IMG/VR virus record: IMGVR_UViG_3300048924_000100
Coordinates: 124,001 to 188,000 of that record
DNA: 64,000 nucleotides
From: a virus
Strand: one strand, 5' to 3'
Position 1 is the stretch's first letter; the number at the start of each line of letters is the position of its first letter. The notes beneath the pieces were generated by a model, which was not told the DNA's origin, searched no databases, and saw only the letters and a program-made list of their open reading frames with translations. Below are positions 11,257 through 41,381 of the stretch, in pieces. Both the position numbers and the translations under genes were made by a program.

Positions 11257-11267
11257 AGCTGCTTTAC
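11254..11267 (+). repeat. Conserved terminator tail, copy 1
   Basis: TATAGCTGCTTTAC, identical to 17329-17342; related tails are at 3990-4003 and 48988-48998. It lies just after perfect hairpins and includes the stop codon of the convergent minus-strand gene. Confidence 0.6.
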
Positions 11268-13135
11268 GCCGCTTCTTTCAATACTTCTGGTAATACTTGT
11301 GCTTGTCGTGCTTCACGTTCTGCTTTGGCTTTCTCTGCACTTTCACGCAGTTGCTTCAACATGTCCCCCATACCCAGTTCTTCCAGACCTTTCTCGAAGT
11401 CGGATTGCAGGTTGTCTGCTTGTGGGAAACGGAACAGGTCATGACCCAAGCCCATGGCATTCGCCTGAGTACTGCTGGCATAGTTCACGGCTATCTCCCG
11501 GAACTTCATGTCGTTAGCACCCTGAATGGCATAGACCTCCATCTGAGTCGTTTTGTTACTGACGTTATCGGCCAGTGTACCTGTTGGGTAAGCACCTTCA
11601 ACGTCAAGGTCAGACGTGCTACCACGACCCGAACTGAGTACATCGTCCAGACCAATAAACATCGCTCGGCCCATGTCTGCGTTCTTCTCAGTATCGAGGA
11701 GGGCAATCCAGTTGTCGAGGGTTGGTAGACGATCAGTAAAGGTCTTGTCACGTTTAGACGGCGTACTGCCCCAGACGTAACCATGCTCACGTGCAAGGAA
11801 CGACAGGGTGTCCGAGATCAGACGTGGCTGTGAAACAAAGTTGAAGTATTCCGAATAACGCAACAGCATTGGAATCGACAGCGAGAAGTCAAGCGTTTTC
11901 TCGTTGATCTCTTCAATAGGCCAGTTGTCGGCGATGTTGTACATCGAATACAGGTAAGGATGGTCCTTCTGCATATATCGATGCCACTGACCCGAGCCTG
12001 GACCCTTGCTCATGCCCTCTTCGGTATACAGCTTACCCTTGACCTCTTCACGAGTAGCAATGGCCTCCAGCGAGTAACCCTCGAGCTTACCCGACGAGAA
12101 ACGTTTAATAGCATAACCCGACATAGCGTCAGCCCATTGCCACTTAGCCGGAGTACGAACCGTTGGAAACTTCTCTTGTGGTTCCAGAGGCGTCTTGTCG
12201 CCGTTCTCCTTGATCTTGTGCGTACGACCAAGGTTCAGCTCGTAACTGCGATACTCTTTCGGTACCGATGGATCACTGTAGACGTCTGCGAGGTTATAAC
12301 CTTCACACCTGAGAGCGCGTTCACAGGCTTCCATGTCATAACCAGCGTTCCAGCTCAGTACCCAGTCCGGCTCCCATTCGTGGAACTTCTGAATGCACGC
12401 AAAAGCAATCTGACCAGGAGTATCGAACAACTCATACTCGATCACACACTTGCGACGGTCAACGTGTTCCTGGAGGTATTTCTCTTCAGCTGCTTTTAAC
12501 CGAGCAATGATATCAGCATCAGTTAATTTAACCTTGGGGTCAATCCTGTCCTGACGACTCTGGAACCAGCTGCGTTGTCCTGCCCAGTAAGCTTTACCCT
12601 TCATAGTGACCGAGGCCATCATGATTGGCTTGACTTCACCCGGAAACTCCATATCCGCTTCAACGTCGAACGCTGCTACCGAATAGGGTTCCTTTTCCTG
12701 ATACTCTGCGTACTTCTTAAAGAACTGTTGCTTGAAGTGCACCGGTGTGGTCTGGTCCAAACCAAACACGTACTGGATACCCTTGCCCGACTTGACGTCA
12801 TAGATCGTTGCACCGCGGTCAGCTACCCCAAATAGCTGCTTGCGTACTTCAAACGGAATGTCACGACGGGTGCTGCGGTATTCACGGCAGTAACGTTCTT
12901 CCAGATAGTCTTTAGGCTGGTTGAACTTGCGATGCTGCTCTTTGACCAGGTGCCAAGGCTGCTTATAGTTCTCGTAAGACTGGAACACATTGCTGCGACT
13001 TCCGTCTTCGTGAATGTTGGTAATCTTTGCACTCAGCAAGTCTTTGCTCTTGTCAAAACGATGCTCTGTGTAGATGGCATGTTTGCAGACACGAGCAATA
13101 ATAGGTGATAGGTTTTCTGCGACAGTTTGTGTCAT
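11264..13135 (-). CDS. Family B DNA polymerase, exonuclease and motif A part (split or truncated)
   Basis: 623-residue protein with the three proofreading motifs of family B polymerases: Exo I AFDVEAD (D157, E159), Exo II WNAGYDMEA (N263, D267) and Exo III YNIAD (Y399, D403). Palm motif A is DVEGAYPT at 511-518, followed by an NVSNKTT stretch typical after motif A. Motif B (K...NSxYG) and motif C (YxDTD) are absent and the protein ends about 105 residues after motif A in a Glu/Lys/Ala tail. The remaining palm and thumb must lie on another polypeptide if the enzyme is active. Start at 13135 is chosen for the AGGA upstream; 13150 is possible. It is a single minus-strand gene between virion blocks. 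Confidence 0.8.
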   Translation of the reverse strand: MTQTVAENLSPIIARVCKHAIYTEHRFDKSKDLLSAKITNIHEDGSRSNVFQSYENYKQPWHLVKEQHRKFNQPKDYLEERYCREYRSTRRDIPFEVRKQLFGVADRGATIYDVKSGKGIQYVFGLDQTTPVHFKQQFFKKYAEYQEKEPYSVAAFDVEADMEFPGEVKPIMMASVTMKGKAYWAGQRSWFQSRQDRIDPKVKLTDADIIARLKAAEEKYLQEHVDRRKCVIEYELFDTPGQIAFACIQKFHEWEPDWVLSWNAGYDMEACERALRCEGYNLADVYSDPSVPKEYRSYELNLGRTHKIKENGDKTPLEPQEKFPTVRTPAKWQWADAMSGYAIKRFSSGKLEGYSLEAIATREEVKGKLYTEEGMSKGPGSGQWHRYMQKDHPYLYSMYNIADNWPIEEINEKTLDFSLSIPMLLRYSEYFNFVSQPRLISDTLSFLAREHGYVWGSTPSKRDKTFTDRLPTLDNWIALLDTEKNADMGRAMFIGLDDVLSSGRGSTSDLDVEGAYPTGTLADNVSNKTTQMEVYAIQGANDMKFREIAVNYASSTQANAMGLGHDLFRFPQADNLQSDFEKGLEELGMGDMLKQLRESAEKAKAEREARQAQVLPEVLKEAA

Positions 13136-13149
13136 GATTTTATCCTGCA

Positions 13150-13156
13150 TTTTATG
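13150..13156 (+). promoter_or_regulatory. Weak candidate late promoter (TTTTATG)
   Basis: ATTTTATG lies 63 bp before the metallopeptidase gene, a spacing like that of the GTATTTTATG copies at 9332 and 39038. It overlaps the 5' end of the minus-strand polymerase gene region. Only the match and spacing support it. Confidence 0.25.
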
Positions 13157-13218
13157 CCCGCTTTTAGCGCTATATCAATGGCGTCCCAGTATTAAATATC
13201 TTTGAGGAGTACAGGTGC

Positions 13219-14598
13219 ATGATCTCAATGGACTTTTTGAAACGACCCGTCGGAGGGTTGGAGTTCATTAACTTCCAGTCTTCTGACTTTTATCGCAAGA
13301 TGGTGACATTCCTCGAAAGTCAGATTAGTCCCGACGGTGTTCTGAGTAAAGAAGCCATTCCTGGCATCAAATCCCTCATCGAGGAATACACTGGCTTCAA
13401 GAACATCGACATGAAGCTATCCAACAGCGGTAACTTCTCTGTTGACGTTGGCTACTTCTCCCCCAACCACGTGTTCAATCACCAGTTGGCGGATGAGCTG
13501 CTGAAACCTACTCAGTCGACCCTGTACCGCTGGTTTACCCAGAACAAGGACAAGGTGTTCAAAGGTGGGATTGATTACTCGACAGGTAAAGTACAAGGTA
13601 GCTTCCAGACCTTGCCTGTTACCTTCCTGATCAACCCGGATCTCAGCGCCACCTTCCCAGCCGACAAGATAAAGAAGTTCGGCGTTCCGTTGGCAGGTAT
13701 CTTGGCGGGTGCGATTGCCCACGAATGCGGTCACGTGTTCAGCGGTTGCATGATGCTGCTCACAGTCGCGTCTGACAACCTTTATCTGAAAGCCTCCCTG
13801 CAGTACTACCGTGGGGCCAACGACGCCTCAGATCGCGTTGTAGTGCTCAAGGACATCGCTTCGCTGCTGGACGTTCCGCCTGCTAAACAGGGTGAGCTGC
13901 AAAAGCTGGCACAAGACCAAGATGACAAAACCCTCTTCCTCTACTTCGACAAATTAATCGCCCAACGTAATATGCGACGCAGTTTGTCGGTTGGGGTAGA
14001 GGCCATGTCCTCTGAAGTTGTGGCCGATATGTACGCCATTCGTATGGGTTGCGAGAAGGGCGTTATCGCGGCTATCGGTATCCTGACTGACCAGGGTTGC
14101 ATCCAGACCGTGGTCAATGGCCTGCTGATCGCTGCTGTGGTAACCCTCGTTGCGCTGCCGGGTTGGATCGCTCTGACCGTCACCATGGGTATTGCAGGAG
14201 CACTGTTCACGGCGATGGTCTTCTACATGTTCATCTTCGTCATGAGCTACTTCAGTAAAGGCTACTCGGGTGTCTACAACGCCGACCATCGTCGTTTCGA
14301 AGATGCTGTGCGTCAGTTGATCCAGAAGCTGAAAGAAGACACCTCGATGCCAGAGAAAGACAAACTCGCTTTGGCAAACGAAGTGCAAGATCTGTTGGTG
14401 CATGCCAACAATCTGCGTCCTTGGTATGAGAGTACCGTGATCCACCGCTTCATGGGTTGGGTGTTCAGCCAGGCTGACTTCAAAGCCCAAGAAGTTGAAC
14501 ACTACACTTCCGTGATTGCCAACCACGAGGTGAATACCATTGCTGTCAAACTGGCCAACCTGAAAGCTCGTCGTGATCCGGAAGGTATCGAAGCTTAA
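13219..14598 (+). CDS. M48-like membrane zinc metallopeptidase, 459 residues
   Basis: HECGH at 168-172 is the HExxH zinc motif, lying in a hydrophobic helix. EVVADMYAIRMG (E266) about 95 residues later matches the ExxxAD-type third zinc ligand of M48 peptidases such as HtpX and Ste24. Two hydrophobic segments at about 299-318 and 323-345 look like a membrane hairpin. M48 enzymes cut membrane or misfolded proteins at the inner membrane; the target here is unknown. GAGGAG is well spaced before the start. It leads a plus-strand unit that includes an internal head protein, so a role in virion maturation, entry or host membrane change are all possible. It is not a typical prohead protease, which is a serine enzyme in this group. 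Confidence 0.65.
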   Translation: MISMDFLKRPVGGLEFINFQSSDFYRKMVTFLESQISPDGVLSKEAIPGIKSLIEEYTGFKNIDMKLSNSGNFSVDVGYFSPNHVFNHQLADELLKPTQSTLYRWFTQNKDKVFKGGIDYSTGKVQGSFQTLPVTFLINPDLSATFPADKIKKFGVPLAGILAGAIAHECGHVFSGCMMLLTVASDNLYLKASLQYYRGANDASDRVVVLKDIASLLDVPPAKQGELQKLAQDQDDKTLFLYFDKLIAQRNMRRSLSVGVEAMSSEVVADMYAIRMGCEKGVIAAIGILTDQGCIQTVVNGLLIAAVVTLVALPGWIALTVTMGIAGALFTAMVFYMFIFVMSYFSKGYSGVYNADHRRFEDAVRQLIQKLKEDTSMPEKDKLALANEVQDLLVHANNLRPWYESTVIHRFMGWVFSQADFKAQEVEHYTSVIANHEVNTIAVKLANLKARRDPEGIEA

Positions 14599-14627: not shown

Positions 14628-15023
14628 ATGTCGCACTTGATCCACGTTCTTGAATACAAGAAAGCCCTGACCGAAAAAGGTATCACCTGCCCGATCGAAC
14701 AGAGCAAGCTGCTGGCCGAACCTTTCGCTCGCGCACTGATCCGCCGTTCGTACCGTGTTGGTGGCTGGACCACCGAGATGGATGAGAAGGCTTGGGCTCA
14801 GCTCGACAAGTGGAACAACGTGTCGCCTATCCCAGCGCCTCTGATCCACAAGACCGCCCAGGTTCGCATCGGCATGATCAACGGTGCCATGATGACCACT
14901 GGTACCCTGCCGTGCAAGAGCGGCTTCACCACTGTCGTTAACGACGTTGACGTAGGCGAACTGCCTGCTTGCACCGTCCTGACCGATTACCTGGTAAAAG
15001 AGCTGGAGGCTAACCGTGAGTGA
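14628..15023 (+). CDS. Unknown 131-residue protein
   Basis: Small soluble protein with three cysteines and no recognised motif. Highly C-ending codons and a strong ribosome site within the palindromic leader suggest high expression. Its end overlaps the GTG start of the next gene by 8 bp, so the two are coupled. Virion role inferred from context; function unknown. Confidence 0.72.
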   Translation: MSHLIHVLEYKKALTEKGITCPIEQSKLLAEPFARALIRRSYRVGGWTTEMDEKAWAQLDKWNNVSPIPAPLIHKTAQVRIGMINGAMMTTGTLPCKSGFTTVVNDVDVGELPACTVLTDYLVKELEANRE

Positions 15024-16530
15024 TCCAGCTACTACTAGCATCGACGAGTACCAACAGATCGGTAACTCGAGCCCAGTTGATTCCTATCAGCCAGGCGAAA
15101 ACAAACAACGGGTAGACCTGACGGAATACTACCAGGTCAGTGATCAGAACAACGCGACTGTTATGGTCATGGGTTCTGAAGAGCTGGCCCTCGGTCGTCT
15201 CTCCAAGCAGGTGGCTCGTCACCTTAAACTGCAGGGCGTTGAGAAGTATGACCCGTTTCCTTCGGAGCGTAATGCTCGCATGGGTGCTGAGGGTTTCTTC
15301 AGCGCTATCTACGAGGGCTTCAAGACCTTCGTTGAAACCATTATCAAATATATCCGTATGGCTATCGACTGGGTTGTCGACATGGTCAAGGGTATCTTTG
15401 GTTTCCGCAAAAGTGAGCGGATCACCAAGGCCATCGATGATTCACTGCCAGCACTGAAGAAAGAGTTCGAAGACACGCTGATCAGCTTCGGTTTCAACAT
15501 TGCTGAATACAACGTCGAGAACTTCCTCGGTAACCTACCGGCTGGCCAGGATCGCGTTGCCCAGGTCCACTTGCTGAAGAACAGGCTTGATGGCGATATC
15601 GAGCAGATCAAGAAACTGGAAATGGCTATCCCGCTGATCCAGCAGATCAACGCCAAGATACATCAGGCAGGTGACAAGGTTACCCAGGCTCAGAAGAGAC
15701 TGAAGAAGGTTATCCTCGACGAGTACAACCGTTCGCGCGTTCGCGGCAAAGCGGGTGATCGTGTAGGCGGTGGGGATTCCTCCGAAGTACAGCAACTCTT
15801 CAAGGTCATCCTGGAAACATCGTTGTCTCTGGACGTTAAAGAAATCGCTGGCCTGATGCAGAAACTGTATAAGGATCTGTACAGCCTTGATTTCGCAAAC
15901 GACGAGCTGGCTAACAAGTTTGACCAGGTCCAGAACCGTCTGAAGGCCGAAGTGCAGAATGCCACTGCAACGGTCAAGGGTATCACTGTTAGCGAGACGC
16001 TGGTAACGATCCAGGCGCTCAACGTACGCTACCAGGAGCTGGCTGGCGACGAGTACGACATCTCGAAGGTCGACTGGAAGGCTATCGGCGGAATCATCGT
16101 TAAAGATGATGCTGAGAAGATCTCCCACATGGCCGGGTACTACAACACACCAGGCTTGCTCGCTGCTTATCAGGAGTTGTCGGTTGATATCCGCAACTAC
16201 ACTCAGTGCTGCTACAGCATCAGCAAGGAAGTACTGCGTGTTGAGAAGCAGATCGTTAGTTTGGTTGAGTGGTACGGTCGCATTCACTGCTACTACTACA
16301 ACGGCGTGATAGGCGACATCGATGCGTGCCAGAAAGTGGCCGCTGAAGCTCGCGCCAAGGGCCTCAGCCCAATCGTCACTGCCCAGACCTTTATCAGGGA
16401 CGCGGACGCCAAAACGTTCTTCGAGAAACTGACAGCTAACGTTAACTTAGCCGTTGAACATGACATTGGTGGGTTGAAGACTAGCATCAACAACTTCACC
16501 AAACAAATCGGGGCAGGTAAATTGCTATGA
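15016..16530 (+). CDS. Internal head (inner-body-like) protein with three cleavage-type motifs, 504 residues
   Basis: GTG start with GGAGG upstream. G-x-E motifs lie at 53-55 (GSE), 74-76 (GVE) and 90-92 (GAE before GFFSAI). After the last, residues 93-130 form a long hydrophobic amphipathic helix, as in its paralogues. The rest is a largely helical, coiled-coil-rich body. By analogy with phiKZ inner-body proteins it should be packed in the capsid and trimmed by the prohead protease; this is inference from motif layout and paralogy. It overlaps both neighbours by 4-8 bp. Confidence 0.68.
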   Translation: MSDPATTSIDEYQQIGNSSPVDSYQPGENKQRVDLTEYYQVSDQNNATVMVMGSEELALGRLSKQVARHLKLQGVEKYDPFPSERNARMGAEGFFSAIYEGFKTFVETIIKYIRMAIDWVVDMVKGIFGFRKSERITKAIDDSLPALKKEFEDTLISFGFNIAEYNVENFLGNLPAGQDRVAQVHLLKNRLDGDIEQIKKLEMAIPLIQQINAKIHQAGDKVTQAQKRLKKVILDEYNRSRVRGKAGDRVGGGDSSEVQQLFKVILETSLSLDVKEIAGLMQKLYKDLYSLDFANDELANKFDQVQNRLKAEVQNATATVKGITVSETLVTIQALNVRYQELAGDEYDISKVDWKAIGGIIVKDDAEKISHMAGYYNTPGLLAAYQELSVDIRNYTQCCYSISKEVLRVEKQIVSLVEWYGRIHCYYYNGVIGDIDACQKVAAEARAKGLSPIVTAQTFIRDADAKTFFEKLTANVNLAVEHDIGGLKTSINNFTKQIGAGKLL

Positions 16531-17273
16531 GCCGAGAAGCCATGTGGGAAGAGATCGTCAAACTGAAGGATGTGGCTATTGTCACTACCCAGACGTACAC
16601 CGACGAACTCGATGCTCTGATTGCAGCAATGGATGAGGAGGGTCTTCCTCTGCCTGTTGCAACAAAGATCATCCGGGGTATCTGGGGTACCAGCTCTCGC
16701 GCTAACGCTTTGATGGTGCGTTTGTCGGACTGTTTCCCTGAGACCAACAAGGAAGTGGTGCTGTACGCAGGTCTGCCTATCCAGGAGGCTCGCAAGCAGT
16801 TGGGTCAGTTGGATGAGTCTAAGGACTACTTCAAGCTGATCTACACCTACATCAGCGACGCGGTCAACACGACCATGCAGCAGTTGGTGGACGCTGGCTT
16901 TACTGTTGACGCTCAGGCACGACTGAACGAGTTCCGTTGCGAGGTATTGCAGTACGCCGCGTACACGGATAGCTACTTCTACGAGGTTGAACCGTCGCTG
17001 CGTGATGGCACGGTAACTTCGTGGGATCAGCTCACTCGTGTTCCGGATATCGTGATCAACGGGGACTACCTGTTCGTCAACGACTTCAAGGAAACCCTGG
17101 CTAAGGCCCACGATACCTATCTGGAGAGTGCTTTCTATCCAGATCTGAAGATGTCGGGCTACAGCCTCAAGGACTTCTCCTGGCGTACCAGCGACATGAC
17201 CAGCAAGATTCAGATGCCGTTCCTGTTCGCACAGCACCTCAACGCGAAGTACCCTGCTGTATCTGCTGAATAA
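16527..17273 (+). CDS. Unknown 248-residue protein
   Basis: Soluble helix-rich protein with no G-x-E sites and no recognised motif. ATGA overlap couples it to the internal head protein upstream. It ends the plus-strand unit before a terminator. A chaperone or structural partner is possible from coupling alone. Confidence 0.72.
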   Translation: MSREAMWEEIVKLKDVAIVTTQTYTDELDALIAAMDEEGLPLPVATKIIRGIWGTSSRANALMVRLSDCFPETNKEVVLYAGLPIQEARKQLGQLDESKDYFKLIYTYISDAVNTTMQQLVDAGFTVDAQARLNEFRCEVLQYAAYTDSYFYEVEPSLRDGTVTSWDQLTRVPDIVINGDYLFVNDFKETLAKAHDTYLESAFYPDLKMSGYSLKDFSWRTSDMTSKIQMPFLFAQHLNAKYPAVSAE

Positions 17274-20269: not shown

Positions 20270-21346
20270 TTACTTATTGCCCCAGTATTCCATTTCCATC
20301 GAGTTCAGGTTGATCCAGGGATAACACAACGCGTAGTTCGCTGCGTAATACTCACTGAACTTCAACTTACGGTAGTTGTTGTCCCGAACACTTGGGTTCA
20401 TGTTTGGATTGAAGAACAACGTGGTACGGTTAAACATGTCCGCAACACGCAGGTTGTTGTAACGGAAGATCACACTTGGGAAGTTGATCTCTACTTCGTC
20501 TTGCCCTTGGCCACGCAAACTGTTCTGCGTACGGTCGATGGTACTGAAAGCACCCGACGGATAGGTGTTAGGCCAGGAGTAGCCGTTGCAGTAGATCCCT
20601 TCGATACTGCGCATGTTCTTGTTCATGATGATGTGATAGACACGCATGTCATAATCGCGGTAGTTCTGAATCAAGGCATCCGCGTACGGCTCCATGCCTT
20701 CGTCACCCAGCGTCACCGCTTCGATGTAATGGTTCCACACGTCGAAGATAAACGGGACGATACCCGGCTTGGTGTTGTGGAAGGTCAACCGCATCTCGTA
20801 GTCGTAGTTAACCTTCAGAATCCCGTTGGGGTACTGATAGACTTCCTTACGAATACCCGGAGTAGATTTCTCCACTGGCATGGTGACGTCAGGGAAACCC
20901 GAGGACACCTTAACCAGGTTGGTCAAACAGGCCATCCACGGATAGAGTGGATCGAGCATGGAACTGTTACCGCTGTTGGCTCTTCCCCACACCGGATCCA
21001 GCAACCCCTTAACGTAATGTTGTAGGGTATTTCGATCAGGGTTATATAACGGCAACATTTGTGGGTGAAGTATCACGTTTTCATCGGATAAGTTCAACAA
21101 CGGCCGGTTAATAAAGACTAATCCTATGGTGTCGTCGGGGATGGGAGCCAACTGGTTCCCAGGGCCTAGAATTCGTACCCCTTTCAACATGTTGATCAGA
21201 GCGCTAGAGTAACCGGGTCCACCGTTTTCTCGGAACGCATACTCAAGCCAATCCTCATACGACTGGCCGGTCAGATCGCTTGCGGGTTCTTCATTCCCTG
21301 GGGTCTTGTCGTACCACCCGTTATACTGATTCGGATTATCTGCCAT
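20270..21346 (-). CDS. Structural-type protein, 358 residues
   Basis: Tyr, Asn and Pro-rich protein with alternating strands, looking like a tail-tube, connector or baseplate component. I choose 21346 as the start because GGGAG lies 8 bp upstream; a start at 21361 lacks a site. It heads a two-gene minus-strand unit and faces the plus-strand operon across about 33 bp, so promoters for both must overlap coding sequence. Function not recognised. Confidence 0.55.
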   Translation of the reverse strand: MADNPNQYNGWYDKTPGNEEPASDLTGQSYEDWLEYAFRENGGPGYSSALINMLKGVRILGPGNQLAPIPDDTIGLVFINRPLLNLSDENVILHPQMLPLYNPDRNTLQHYVKGLLDPVWGRANSGNSSMLDPLYPWMACLTNLVKVSSGFPDVTMPVEKSTPGIRKEVYQYPNGILKVNYDYEMRLTFHNTKPGIVPFIFDVWNHYIEAVTLGDEGMEPYADALIQNYRDYDMRVYHIIMNKNMRSIEGIYCNGYSWPNTYPSGAFSTIDRTQNSLRGQGQDEVEINFPSVIFRYNNLRVADMFNRTTLFFNPNMNPSVRDNNYRKLKFSEYYAANYALCYPWINLNSMEMEYWGNK

Positions 21347-21379
21347 TTCTCTGGCTCCCATTAATGAAGGAATTACAAA

Positions 21380-26275: not shown

Positions 26276-27547
26276 ATGAGCCTGAATCTTCTTGATATGT
26301 ACGCCGGTGCCGAAGAACTGGAACTGGAAGGTGGCGCTGGTGGCGCCGCAGTGGTTGACGCCGTTGAAGACGTCGTTAAAACCGAAATCGCCGAAGTGAC
26401 CGTCGCTATCGAAGAGCAATCCCAGCAGGTTGAACAGCTGGTTGCCAAGGTCGACGAGCTGGAAGAAGCCGTTGAAGAAGCGACTGAAGTCGTGGAAGGC
26501 ATGGAGTCGCTGATCAACTCCGGCAACTTCAACAGCCTGGCATTCGCCAACCTGTACAACCGCGGCGTGAAGCTCGGTAACAAGCTGGGCGCAAACATCG
26601 GCGGCGAGCGCATGGGCGCTGAGTCCATCACCGACGCTTCGACCGCTCAGATGTATGCTCGTCAGGGCATCGAAAGCATCATGGACTCCATCAAGGAATA
26701 CGGCCGTAAGGCTGTAGAGTTCATCAAGCACATCTTCAACACCGTCATCAACTTCTTCGTGTCGATCTTCGACAAGGCCGCGGCCATCGAGAAGCGTGCT
26801 GACCAGCTGAAGAAACGTCTGGAAGACGGCGCCAAGATCAAAGAGCAAGTTAAACTGGGCAGCTGGAACGTCTGGGTTGACTACGCCAAGAACGGTCTGG
26901 CCGGCGTTAAGCCAAAAGGCTTCGACGCTTCGCAGGGCGCTCTGGCCAAACTGACCGAGCTGGGCAAGAACGTCAACGGTATCGAACTGGAAGACTTCAA
27001 GTCGGCTTACAGCGGCGTGATCGCTGCCATCAAGTCTGACGCCAAGTCGGCTGGCAAGTACAACGAGAAGAAAGCTGGTACTCACGACGTGCTGATCGGC
27101 GTCTTGAACGGTATCCGCATCCAGGCTTCTTACATCGACAGCGACATCAAAACCATGGCCGACGCAGCTAACGCCGCTCGTTCCCTGAAGTTCGTTGTGA
27201 TGAAAGACCCGGAAGCCAAGAAACTGACCAGCGGTTCCGACGTCAAAGCCAAGGCCGACAAGTCTGCCCTGCTGAAAGAAATCGGCGAAATCCGTGCTAT
27301 CAGCAAGACCCTGCGCGAAGGCAAAGTGGCCAAAGCTTTCAGCGCTGCTGAACGCGACCGCGTGATCGGTTCCCTGAACGCGATCAAAGCTGGCGACAAC
27401 GACAAAGCGTCGGAAGTCAACGGCAAAGTGACCCTGGTTAAGGCAGTGTACAGCTCGACTTCGAGCGTCGGCACCAACCTGACCAAAGTCATCGTCAACG
27501 CTGCTGGCGCTGCGCTGGACTGCGTTGCGGCTCACATCTCCTTCTAA
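26276..27547 (+). CDS. Abundant internal head (inner-body-like) protein with four G-x-E sites, 423 residues
   Basis: G-x-E motifs at 11-13 (GAE), 75-77 (GME), 114-116 (GAE before SITD) and 131-133 (GIE before SIMDSI). Residues 21-77 are very acidic and coiled-coil-like, as in scaffold-type propeptides. After the last site comes a hydrophobic amphipathic helix to about residue 165, then a Lys/Ala-rich helical body. Codon bias is among the strongest in the window, so it may be the main inner-body protein. A 53-bp AT-rich leader with AAAGGA precedes it and a terminator follows. Confidence 0.7.
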   Translation: MSLNLLDMYAGAEELELEGGAGGAAVVDAVEDVVKTEIAEVTVAIEEQSQQVEQLVAKVDELEEAVEEATEVVEGMESLINSGNFNSLAFANLYNRGVKLGNKLGANIGGERMGAESITDASTAQMYARQGIESIMDSIKEYGRKAVEFIKHIFNTVINFFVSIFDKAAAIEKRADQLKKRLEDGAKIKEQVKLGSWNVWVDYAKNGLAGVKPKGFDASQGALAKLTELGKNVNGIELEDFKSAYSGVIAAIKSDAKSAGKYNEKKAGTHDVLIGVLNGIRIQASYIDSDIKTMADAANAARSLKFVVMKDPEAKKLTSGSDVKAKADKSALLKEIGEIRAISKTLREGKVAKAFSAAERDRVIGSLNAIKAGDNDKASEVNGKVTLVKAVYSSTSSVGTNLTKVIVNAAGAALDCVAAHISF

Positions 27548-39047: not shown

Positions 39048-39106
39048 TGTAGCGCTAATACACAGACAAATATATTTGTTCACATCCTCAGTAAAGGATT
39101 CGAGTC

Positions 39107-41287
39107 ATGGCCTTTAAACAAGTCACCGCGTCTCTGAAGAATACCGGAAACCTCTTCAGCGCCGTTCGTCAAGCCCTGGGCAACCAACAACTCAACACCG
39201 TCATTGGTGCTGAGAGCTTCGAAGTGTTCCAAGACGGCGTCAATCAGATCACTGGCGTCGAAAGCCACCAACTGACCACGCTGTTCAAGTCGGTCACTCC
39301 GAAGTCCTACGACGCGTTCTCTGGTTCCCTGAACCGTGCCTCTGTTCCTGGCACCGAAATGGCAATCATGAACGAAGCCGCTAAGGCTCTGGCCGAAGTA
39401 ACTGGTATCGAGGGTTTCTCGCTCCAGAACTTCAAAGGCAGCGAGATGGACATCAAGGCAGCTAACCTGACCTTGAACGCCCAGTCGCACCTGCAGACTC
39501 CAGCCGCCGAAGCACTGTTCTCCACCATCACCGTTCGTTACGAAGACGAAGGCGCTAACCTGGTAGTCCGCGCTGCGGGTATCGGTTCGTACGCCTACGG
39601 TAACAGCGCATGGCAGTCGGCTTCCGAGCTGCGTCCGATCTTCGGTCTGCTGCGCTCCGGCGAAATGTTCAAGGACGAAGTTCTGGCCGTGCATCCGGTA
39701 TATCCGGACGACGCTGGTGACGACAACCGCGACTTCTTCGTTGATACCGCGATCATCGCCGCTTCCACCGCTACCTACCCAGAAGCCGACGCTTATGGCC
39801 GTAGCAGCCACGCCACCCAGTACCTGAAAGTTCCGAACACCATTCCGAACCTTCTGGCTCTGACTCAGGTTCCTGGCCAGCGTCCATGGACCAGCACCGA
39901 TGAACTCGAGTCCAACTCGCTGGTCATCAAAGAAGTTCTGGCTTCGGCTAAGTTGGGTAACACCAACATCAACTTCTTCATCAACACCATTTCGATCTCG
40001 AACAACACCTTCGGCCCTACCAGCCAAGGCCAGTCGTCCGACGACCGTGAAGTGAACCTGCACCTGCGCGCTCTGCCAGGCTTCAGCGTGCTGGACAAAA
40101 CCGGCGCTACCGTCGGCGAAACCCTGTTCGCTTCGTTCAAGACCGCTGGTTACGAGCCTCTGCTCAACATCAGCATGAACGGCAACTACCAGCGTCAGAC
40201 CAACGAAATGCGTCTGAACTCTGGCCAGGTGACCGTCCACGGTCTGCGTGACCTGACCAACGGCAACGTTGTCACCATGCACAAAGCTGACGCAACTCAG
40301 AAAGCGCTGATCAAGTCCCTGACTCTGGGTGCTGTGACCGGTATCGATCTGGGCGGCAACGTCTCCAACACCTCCCGCGGTAACTTCGGCTACCGTATCG
40401 AAGTGTTCGATGCTGACAAGCGTCTGTCCGTTCGTCGCAACAGCCCAGTGTCGGTGAAATACCCGGTATCGGCTGACGACGTTAACCAGGGTTCCCTGGA
40501 CTTCGCGATTCAGCAAATGTCGATCGCGATCAACAACCAGTGCTCGAAGAAAGCTTTCGATGTGGCTCAGGAACACCTGAAGTACATCACTTCGATCGAC
40601 GGCTCCCCAGTTGTCGGCAACCAACAGGGCTCCAACGTCCTGCCAGGTCAGCACTACGTTTCGGCTGCAGCTGTTAACCGTTCGTTCAAGATCAAGGACC
40701 GTGTATCGTCCCTGGACTCGATCGACGTGTTCGACAACGTTGCTGCTGTGTTCCTGAACGAAATCAGCGACATCACTGCTGCCCTGAACACCAAGTCGGG
40801 TCTGGCTGCGATCGCTGAATACGGCGGCACTGACAAGATCGAATGGACCGTCGTGGTTCACCAGAACTTGGCGCGCTTCCTGATGCGTTCGGGCGATGCT
40901 CGTTCCCTGGGTCCGGTCACTCCAATGACCATCGTTGAGACCAACTTCGACAGCCAAATCGGCCAACTGCTGATCGTTCCGAAGAACACGTCCACCAACG
41001 ACTTCATCAACCCACTGGGCGGCATCGGCGTGAACATCTCGAAAGAGAACATCGTCGTGCAAGGCAACGTGACTCGTGACCAACAGGACTTCGGTGTGGT
41101 TATGACCATGCCTACCTACCGTCACTGGCCACTGAACGTTATCATCGGCTCGCTGACCATCGAAGATGCTCACGAGTTCCTGGGTGATGACGGTCTGCTG
41201 ACCAAGCTGGCTAAACAGGTTGTTGAAGTCCAAGGTATGAGCGATCTGATCGCTGCTACCGAAGGCAACGCGCCAGTAACCCCGTAA
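39107..41287 (+). CDS. Major capsid protein with processed propeptide, 726 residues
   Basis: Size matches the phiKZ-type major capsid protein (about 750 residues), and codon bias to C-ending forms is extreme, as expected for the most abundant virion protein. Five G-x-E sites crowd residues 34-113 (GAE 34-36, GVE 50-52, GTE 82-84, GIE 100-102 before GFSL, GSE 111-113), while the remaining 613 residues have one (GYE). So the first 113 or so residues look like a prohead-protease propeptide. The rest is a mixed strand-helix fold consistent with HK97-type capsid proteins, but I cannot trace the fold. Ribosome site AAAGGA. Two hairpins follow the gene. Confidence 0.78.
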   Translation: MAFKQVTASLKNTGNLFSAVRQALGNQQLNTVIGAESFEVFQDGVNQITGVESHQLTTLFKSVTPKSYDAFSGSLNRASVPGTEMAIMNEAAKALAEVTGIEGFSLQNFKGSEMDIKAANLTLNAQSHLQTPAAEALFSTITVRYEDEGANLVVRAAGIGSYAYGNSAWQSASELRPIFGLLRSGEMFKDEVLAVHPVYPDDAGDDNRDFFVDTAIIAASTATYPEADAYGRSSHATQYLKVPNTIPNLLALTQVPGQRPWTSTDELESNSLVIKEVLASAKLGNTNINFFINTISISNNTFGPTSQGQSSDDREVNLHLRALPGFSVLDKTGATVGETLFASFKTAGYEPLLNISMNGNYQRQTNEMRLNSGQVTVHGLRDLTNGNVVTMHKADATQKALIKSLTLGAVTGIDLGGNVSNTSRGNFGYRIEVFDADKRLSVRRNSPVSVKYPVSADDVNQGSLDFAIQQMSIAINNQCSKKAFDVAQEHLKYITSIDGSPVVGNQQGSNVLPGQHYVSAAAVNRSFKIKDRVSSLDSIDVFDNVAAVFLNEISDITAALNTKSGLAAIAEYGGTDKIEWTVVVHQNLARFLMRSGDARSLGPVTPMTIVETNFDSQIGQLLIVPKNTSTNDFINPLGGIGVNISKENIVVQGNVTRDQQDFGVVMTMPTYRHWPLNVIIGSLTIEDAHEFLGDDGLLTKLAKQVVEVQGMSDLIAATEGNAPVTP

Positions 41288-41309
41288 TAAGGGTTGCCGC
41301 AGCTTACTA

Positions 41310-41337
41310 CGGAGTCTTGACTCCCGAGTAGACTCCG
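41310..41337 (+). terminator. First hairpin after the capsid gene
   Basis: An 8-bp stem (about 41310-41317 with 41330-41337) and 12-base loop, followed by TTGTTG. May protect the message end or attenuate read-through. Confidence 0.55.
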
Positions 41338-41381
41338 TTGTTGCGTCTGCTGTTGTAACCCCTTTCACAAGGGACTAAATG

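What the first reader, a model, noticed from the sequence alone, without database searches (positions are those of the whole stretch)
13219..14598. M48-like membrane metallopeptidase encoded among virion genes
HECGH, a downstream E...AD motif and a membrane hairpin fit M48 peptidases, which are rarely noted in phages. It leads the operon of an internal head protein.
Basis: partly seen in the sequence, partly recalled or inferred. Interest (0 to 1): 0.65.

Follow-up and report, generated by a model that had tools for sequence, protein, structure and literature searches.

The report
Packaged M48-like peptidase of jumbo phages
A giant phage carries, probably inside its head, a protein with the active-site signatures of a membrane-bound zinc-dependent protein-cutting enzyme plus a conserved short 'packing tag' that its own head protease is expected to clip off, so it is probably delivered into the bacterium with the viral DNA.

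Summary
The ORF at 13219-14598 (+, 459 aa) is real. It is an ortholog of a core protein of phiKZ-related jumbo phages (phiKZ gp84, SPN3US gp45, EL gp52, OBP gp100; PHROG 2767, 'unknown function'). In 132 distinct full-length homologs HExGH168-172 and E266..D270 never vary. A third motif, Y353x5R359, matches in spacing the HPxxxxR of bacterial M48 peptidases. Profile-profile comparison prefers M48 (97%) over M1, M3 and SprT, but Foldseek finds no PDB fold match and the ligand geometry could not be inspected. So the family is M48-like; strict membership is unproven.

New here: residue E15 is conserved in 130/132, with G/S/A two residues before it in 128. This matches the S/A/G-X-E specificity of the phiKZ prohead protease, and is the exact site (ASE-20) where SPN3US gp45 is cleaved in mature heads. 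The predicted fold starts just after it. The phage encodes a homologous head protease. Most likely: a head-packaged peptidase with a removable targeting tag, then ejected and anchored in membrane by its hairpin.

Not rare: a zincin-like metallopeptidase in this family was predicted in 2021, and head localisation was published separately. Linking the two appears to be new.

The parts
13219..14598 (+). CDS of the M48-like peptidase, 459 aa, PHROG 2767; ortholog of phiKZ gp84, SPN3US gp45, EL gp52, OBP gp100, RisingSun gp57
13204..13209 (+). likely ribosome-binding site (gaggag)
   Evidence: sequence
13219..13263 (+). residues 1-15, predicted N-terminal propeptide / capsid-targeting tag ending in GLE15; cleavage expected after E15
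   Evidence: E15 130/132, G/S/A at P3 128/132; aligned to experimental site ASE-20 of SPN3US gp45; residues 1-14 pLDDT <50
13720..13734 (+). HExxH zinc motif, residues 168-172 (HECGH)
   Evidence: invariant in 132 homologs
14014..14028 (+). ExxAD motif, residues 266-270 (EVVAD), predicted third zinc ligand E266
   Evidence: E and D invariant in 132 homologs; in register with M48 ExxAD
14092..14256 (+). hydrophobic hairpin, residues 292-346, between the second and third M48-type motifs
14275..14295 (+). Y353-x5-R359 motif, spacing as in HPxxxxR of M48
   Evidence: spacing 6 in 131/132 homologs; 39/39 bacterial M48 have HPxxxxR after ExxAD
14628..15023 (+). second gene of the cluster, virion structural protein (phrog_14520)
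   Evidence: position of EL gp53 / phiKZ gp85
15016..16530 (+). third gene, virion structural protein (phrog_14541), EL gp54 / OBP gp102 type, positional equivalent of SPN3US gp47 ejection protein
16527..17273 (+). fourth gene of the cluster, unknown
11264..13150 (-). divergent neighbour, DNA polymerase-like protein (phrog_3011); divergently adjacent in 106 of 129 related loci

Best explanation
The gene encodes an M48-like zinc metallopeptidase that is a minor internal protein of the phage head. Step 1 (strongly inferred from a proven ortholog): its first 15 residues act as a short capsid-targeting propeptide, and the phage's own prohead serine protease cuts after GLE15 during head maturation, leaving a 444-residue mature protein in the filled head. 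Step 2 (inferred): it is ejected with the DNA, like the virion RNA polymerase and inner-body proteins. Step 3 (inferred): the hydrophobic hairpin, which has no obvious use inside a capsid, inserts into the host inner membrane or the early-infection vesicle made from it. Step 4 (inferred from invariant residues, untested): H168, H172 and E266 bind zinc, E169 is the general base, D270 and R359 shape the site, and the enzyme cleaves host or phage proteins at that membrane to promote entry or vesicle function.
For: Active-site set invariant in 132 homologs. M48 preferred in profile tests: 97.2% vs M1 17.9%, M3 0%, SprT 0% in global mode; ZMPSTE24 is the best PDB sequence match, E 2e-4, both motifs in order. 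Third motif (H/Y)x5R matches M48 in spacing. Packaging: SPN3US gp45 is found in purified virions and heads and is cleaved at ASE-20 in all preparations (PMC10052503 Table 2); that E is the same alignment column as window E15. phiKZ protease motif is S/A/G-X-E (PMC13282480). PHIKZ084 is annotated structural head protein. The own genome encodes a phiKZ gp175-type head protease, E 3e-20. Model pLDDT 84.6, pTM 0.83, low confidence exactly through residue 14. Injected virion proteins are found in membrane-bound early infection vesicles of related phages (PMC12908238).
Against: No PDB fold match for the full or core model. With HExxH masked the M48 match falls to 4.5% probability, though it keeps register. 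The window protein alone does not hit Pfam M48. In M48 the third motif is HP, here YD/YN. The hydrophobic stretch could be a helical hairpin used in the capsid. No experiment that I found shows ejection, membrane insertion or proteolysis for any family member, or that the gene is essential.
Confidence: 0.5

Rival explanations
1. It is a second head-maturation protease: it works inside the prohead beside the serine prohead protease and processes other head proteins, as Iyer et al. suggested for the family.
For: Iyer et al. 2021 propose maturation cleavage for AMR59696.1, which is SEGD1 gp047, identical to SPN3US gp45. It is a head protein encoded with head genes.
Against: All SPN3US head cleavage sites listed in PMC10052503 Table 2 fit the serine protease's AxE motif; the search there was for such sites, so other cleavages are not excluded. 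A membrane hairpin has no obvious use in a capsid.
Confidence: 0.2
2. It acts in the producing cell before packaging, for instance as a membrane-bound quality-control or host-takeover peptidase of HtpX/BepA type, and head incorporation is secondary.
For: Several M48 enzymes of bacteria are membrane-associated quality-control proteases (own knowledge); hydrophobic region conserved.
Against: A targeting propeptide kept in 57 of 62 clusters at 40% identity argues that packaging is the selected property; the gene sits in a virion gene cluster.
Confidence: 0.12
3. It is an ejected membrane or structural protein that keeps a zinc site for folding but is not a protease.
For: No activity has been shown; the third motif is Y instead of H; no PDB fold match.
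Against: The general base E169 is invariant in 132 homologs, which a purely structural zinc site would not need.
Confidence: 0.1
4. It is a zincin of another family (M1, M3, SprT or a new one), and the M48 resemblance is convergent around HExxH and ExxAD.
For: Most of the profile score comes from HExxH; Foldseek against PDB is negative.
Against: ExxAD and (H/Y)x5R follow in the M48 order and the six-residue step is kept; M1, M3 and SprT score far lower.
Confidence: 0.08

Closest known systems
SPN3US gp45 / phiKZ gp84 (PHROG 2767), head protein of unknown function
   Same: Orthologs in the same conserved gene cluster; same HExxH, ExxAD, hydrophobic hairpin region and N-terminal [AGS]xE site
   Different: Published as a head protein of unknown function; no peptidase assignment in the papers read. 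The window member is about 16% identical to SPN3US gp45 over the alignment.
'Uncharacterized zincin-like metallopeptidase' of group 1 jumbo phages (AMR59696.1), Iyer et al. 2021 (PMC7824862)
   Same: AMR59696.1 is SEGD1 gp047, same family
   Different: The main text does not name M48 and, in the passages read, does not mention a membrane hairpin, propeptide or ejection; it suggests a role in maturation
M48 peptidases (Ste24/ZMPSTE24, HtpX, BepA, LoiP)
   Same: HExxH, ExxAD and a third motif ending in R at +6; membrane association
   Different: HP replaced by YD/YN; hydrophobic hairpin lies between ExxAD and the third motif, whereas in HtpX hydrophobic stretches lie between HExxH and ExxAD; carries a viral propeptide; no PDB fold match by Foldseek
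Bacillus phage AR9 gp51 and gp117 'zincin protease' (gp51 noted as pfam01435)
   Same: HEIGH and E..AD/E..SD; distant relative (E 2.8e-5; a Foldseek viral hit named AR9 zincin protease, 6e-5)
   Different: No S/A/G-X-E at the N-terminus (both have LLE at residue 8); no TM-like stretch in gp51
T4 internal proteins with capsid-targeting sequences
   Same: Short N-terminal propeptide removed by the head protease; comparison made for gp45 in PMC5694885
   Different: Unrelated proteins; T4 internal proteins are not known as peptidases (own knowledge)

Membership tests
Peptidase family M48 | HExxH zinc motif | tested here: met
   H168, E169, H172 invariant in 132 homologs
Peptidase family M48 | Third ligand Glu in ExxAD downstream | tested here: met
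   E266 and D270 invariant; spacing H168 to E266 mostly 94-99
Peptidase family M48 | HPxxxxR motif after ExxAD (present in 39/39 bacterial M48 sampled) | tested here: inconclusive
   Spacing and R kept (131/132), H replaced by Y in 125, H in 3
Peptidase family M48 | Match to the curated Pfam model above cut-off | tested here: inconclusive
   Window protein no match; 8/82 members match at E<=0.01, one verified above cut-off, L084 22.3 vs 20.3 bits
Peptidase family M48 | Profile-level homology above other zincin families | tested here: met
   97.2% M48 vs 17.9% M1, 0% M3, 0% SprT in global mode; most of the score rests on HExxH; SprT profile had only 6 sequences
Peptidase family M48 | Catalytic-domain fold similar to solved M48 structures | tested here: inconclusive
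   No significant Foldseek PDB match for the full or core model; coordinates not available for a direct superposition
Peptidase family M48 | Zinc-dependent proteolysis | not testable with these tools
   no assay
Prohead-protease-processed head protein of phiKZ-like phages | S/A/G-X-E site near the N-terminus | tested here: met
   GLE15; E in 130/132, G/S/A at P3 in 128/132
Prohead-protease-processed head protein of phiKZ-like phages | Cognate prohead protease encoded in the same phage | tested here: met
   G000:69539-70162, E 3.4e-20 to phiKZ gp175
Prohead-protease-processed head protein of phiKZ-like phages | Presence in virion and cleavage by mass spectrometry | not testable with these tools
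   Shown for ortholog SPN3US gp45 (PMC10052503), not for this phage
Ejection (E) protein | Enters the host cell with DNA | not testable with these tools
   Inferred from the cluster neighbour gp47 and from the hairpin

The most novel reading that the evidence does not exclude
phiKZ-related (nucleus-forming type) jumbo phages inject a ready-made, capsid-tagged, membrane-inserting M48-type protease with their DNA. It cuts membrane or vesicle proteins in the first minutes of infection and is needed to form or mature the early-infection vesicle or to disable a membrane-linked defence.
Probability: 0.3. Interest if true: 0.85.

Novelty: new variant of a known kind. Interest (0 to 1): 0.58.

Why it matters
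How these phages build a membrane vesicle around incoming DNA is an open question (stated so in PMC12908238). This family is a widely conserved, catalytic-looking head protein with a membrane hairpin and a packaging tag. It is therefore a concrete enzymatic candidate acting at that step, testable by two point mutations. It also joins two published facts that I found nowhere connected: a conserved prohead-protease substrate of 'unknown function' and a predicted zincin of unknown location.

Tried and rejected
phiKZ gp157 was first taken as the ortholog because of a similar gene order at the phiKZ ribonuclease H gene; it lacks HExxH, and a whole-genome profile search found gp84 instead. phmmer of the single protein vs PDB gave nothing. 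Foldseek vs PDB with the full model and with the hairpin-free core gave no match. Pfam M48 over the phage's own genome gave nothing. hhalign against only three E. coli M48 proteins aligned just the HExxH region, so a 39-sequence profile was built. Some searches used patterns containing HExGH or ExAD, so invariance was checked per retrieval set. Exportin-1 hits in the PDB profile search look like helix-repeat noise and vanish with the larger alignment. A literature search for phiKZ gp84 function found nothing in the held library; Thomas et al. 2012, the primary phiKZ processing paper, is not held.

Full report
What is there. The window lies in a 214,198-base virus record of an EL/RisingSun-like jumbo phage. 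The ORF 13219-14598 (+) encodes 459 aa. It belongs to PHROG 2767, unknown function, E 2e-80. tblastn finds it in about 90 phage records, nearly all jumbo phages of Pseudomonas, Erwinia, Klebsiella, Vibrio, Aeromonas and others. A search with the sister protein of SEGD1 finds 207 records, including many phiKZ-like phages. phiKZ gp84 is the homolog, E 7.5e-48.

Gene order. In the records read the gene usually follows a divergent polymerase-like gene and is followed by a small virion protein and a larger one. In 132 loci the polymerase homolog is divergently adjacent in 106 of the 129 with enough flank.

Active site. In 132 distinct full-length homologs H168, E169, G171, H172, E266 and D270 are 100% conserved; G127, G277 and R359 are 98-99%. 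Because some retrieval patterns contained these motifs, the counts were split by retrieval set; sets found with other patterns give the same result. Y353 and R359 lie six residues apart in 131/132. All 39 bacterial M48 proteins sampled have HPxxxxR after ExxAD, with the same six-residue step; here H is mostly Y. The 292-346 hydrophobic hairpin sits between the second and third motif, which accounts for the longer distance (84 vs 46 residues, medians).

Fold and family. The AlphaFold2 model is good (pLDDT 84.6, pTM 0.83; core 89.1/0.86). HExxH lies in helix 158-199, after strand 134-138; E266 lies in helix 265-275. Foldseek against PDB is negative for both models. Against predicted viral proteins it finds the family, AR9 'zincin protease' (6e-5) and phage proteins named M48 or BepA (5e-4 to 9e-3); those names are not independent evidence. 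Sequence profiles point to M48: ZMPSTE24 is the top PDB sequence hit, and hhalign gives 97.2% for M48 against 17.9% M1, 0% SprT and 0% M3 in global mode. Masking HExxH drops the M48 probability to 4.5% while the register survives. I therefore call it M48-like, not a proven M48 member.

Packaging tag. E15 is E in 130/132 homologs and the residue two before it is G, S or A in 128/132; 57 of 62 clusters at 40% identity have the full [AGS]xE. Chance per position is about 1.3%. phiKZ's prohead protease recognises S/A/G-X-E (PMC13282480). The SPN3US ortholog gp45 (SPN3US_0045) is cleaved after ASE-20 in mature heads in every preparation analysed (PMC10052503 Table 2); residue 20 of gp45 falls in the same alignment column. 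Ali et al. compare this 20-residue propeptide with T4 capsid-targeting sequences (PMC5694885). The AlphaFold model of the window protein has very low confidence for residues 1-14 and is folded after. The own genome encodes a gp175-type head protease outside the window.

Known before. Iyer et al. [quoted passage not shown] That accession is SEGD1 gp047 at the syntenic place, and SPN3US gp45 is 100% identical. Some records already call homologs peptidase, CAAX prenyl protease, beta-barrel assembly-enhancing protease or M48 lipoprotein protease. AR9 gp51 was annotated pfam01435. The SPN3US papers call gp45 a head protein of unknown function. I found no held paper that joins the peptidase prediction to the processed head protein.

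How it most likely works. Shown by homology to an experiment: head location and propeptide removal. Inferred: ejection, membrane insertion, zinc proteolysis, and the substrate. The hairpin argues for a role at a membrane after ejection; early-infection vesicles of these phages contain injected virion proteins (PMC12908238). The neighbour 15016-16530 is the positional equivalent of SPN3US gp47, an essential protein inferred to be ejected. The competing idea, a second maturation protease, is weakened because the cleavage sites reported for SPN3US heads all fit the serine protease motif, though that survey looked for such sites.

Noticed in passing
window 20270-21361 (-): Strong Pfam hit to Phage_TTP_15, putative phage tail tube protein (3e-49), while relatives are annotated only as structural or hypothetical protein.
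   Followed up: no
L402:3784-5061 (-) and L403:1155-2126 (+), phage AR9: AR9 gp51 and gp117 zincins lack S/A/G-X-E but both have LLE at residue 8, near where the head-protease site of the phiKZ-like family lies; possibly a T4-like LxE cleavage site.
   Followed up: partly
L032, L135, L191 (homologs), position of window residue 353 (14275-14277): Three homologs keep H instead of Y at the third motif, as in cellular M48; may mark an ancestral state.
   Followed up: no
window 39080-41368 (-): 762-aa ORF with no PHROG match at 1e-5 between replication and virion genes; a 726-aa ORF overlaps it on the other strand (39107-41287 +), so the coding strand needs checking.
   Followed up: no
window 26276-27547 (+): Internal head protein (phrog_5750) has several S/A/G-X-E sites in its first 140 residues, as expected of an inner-body protein.
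   Followed up: partly
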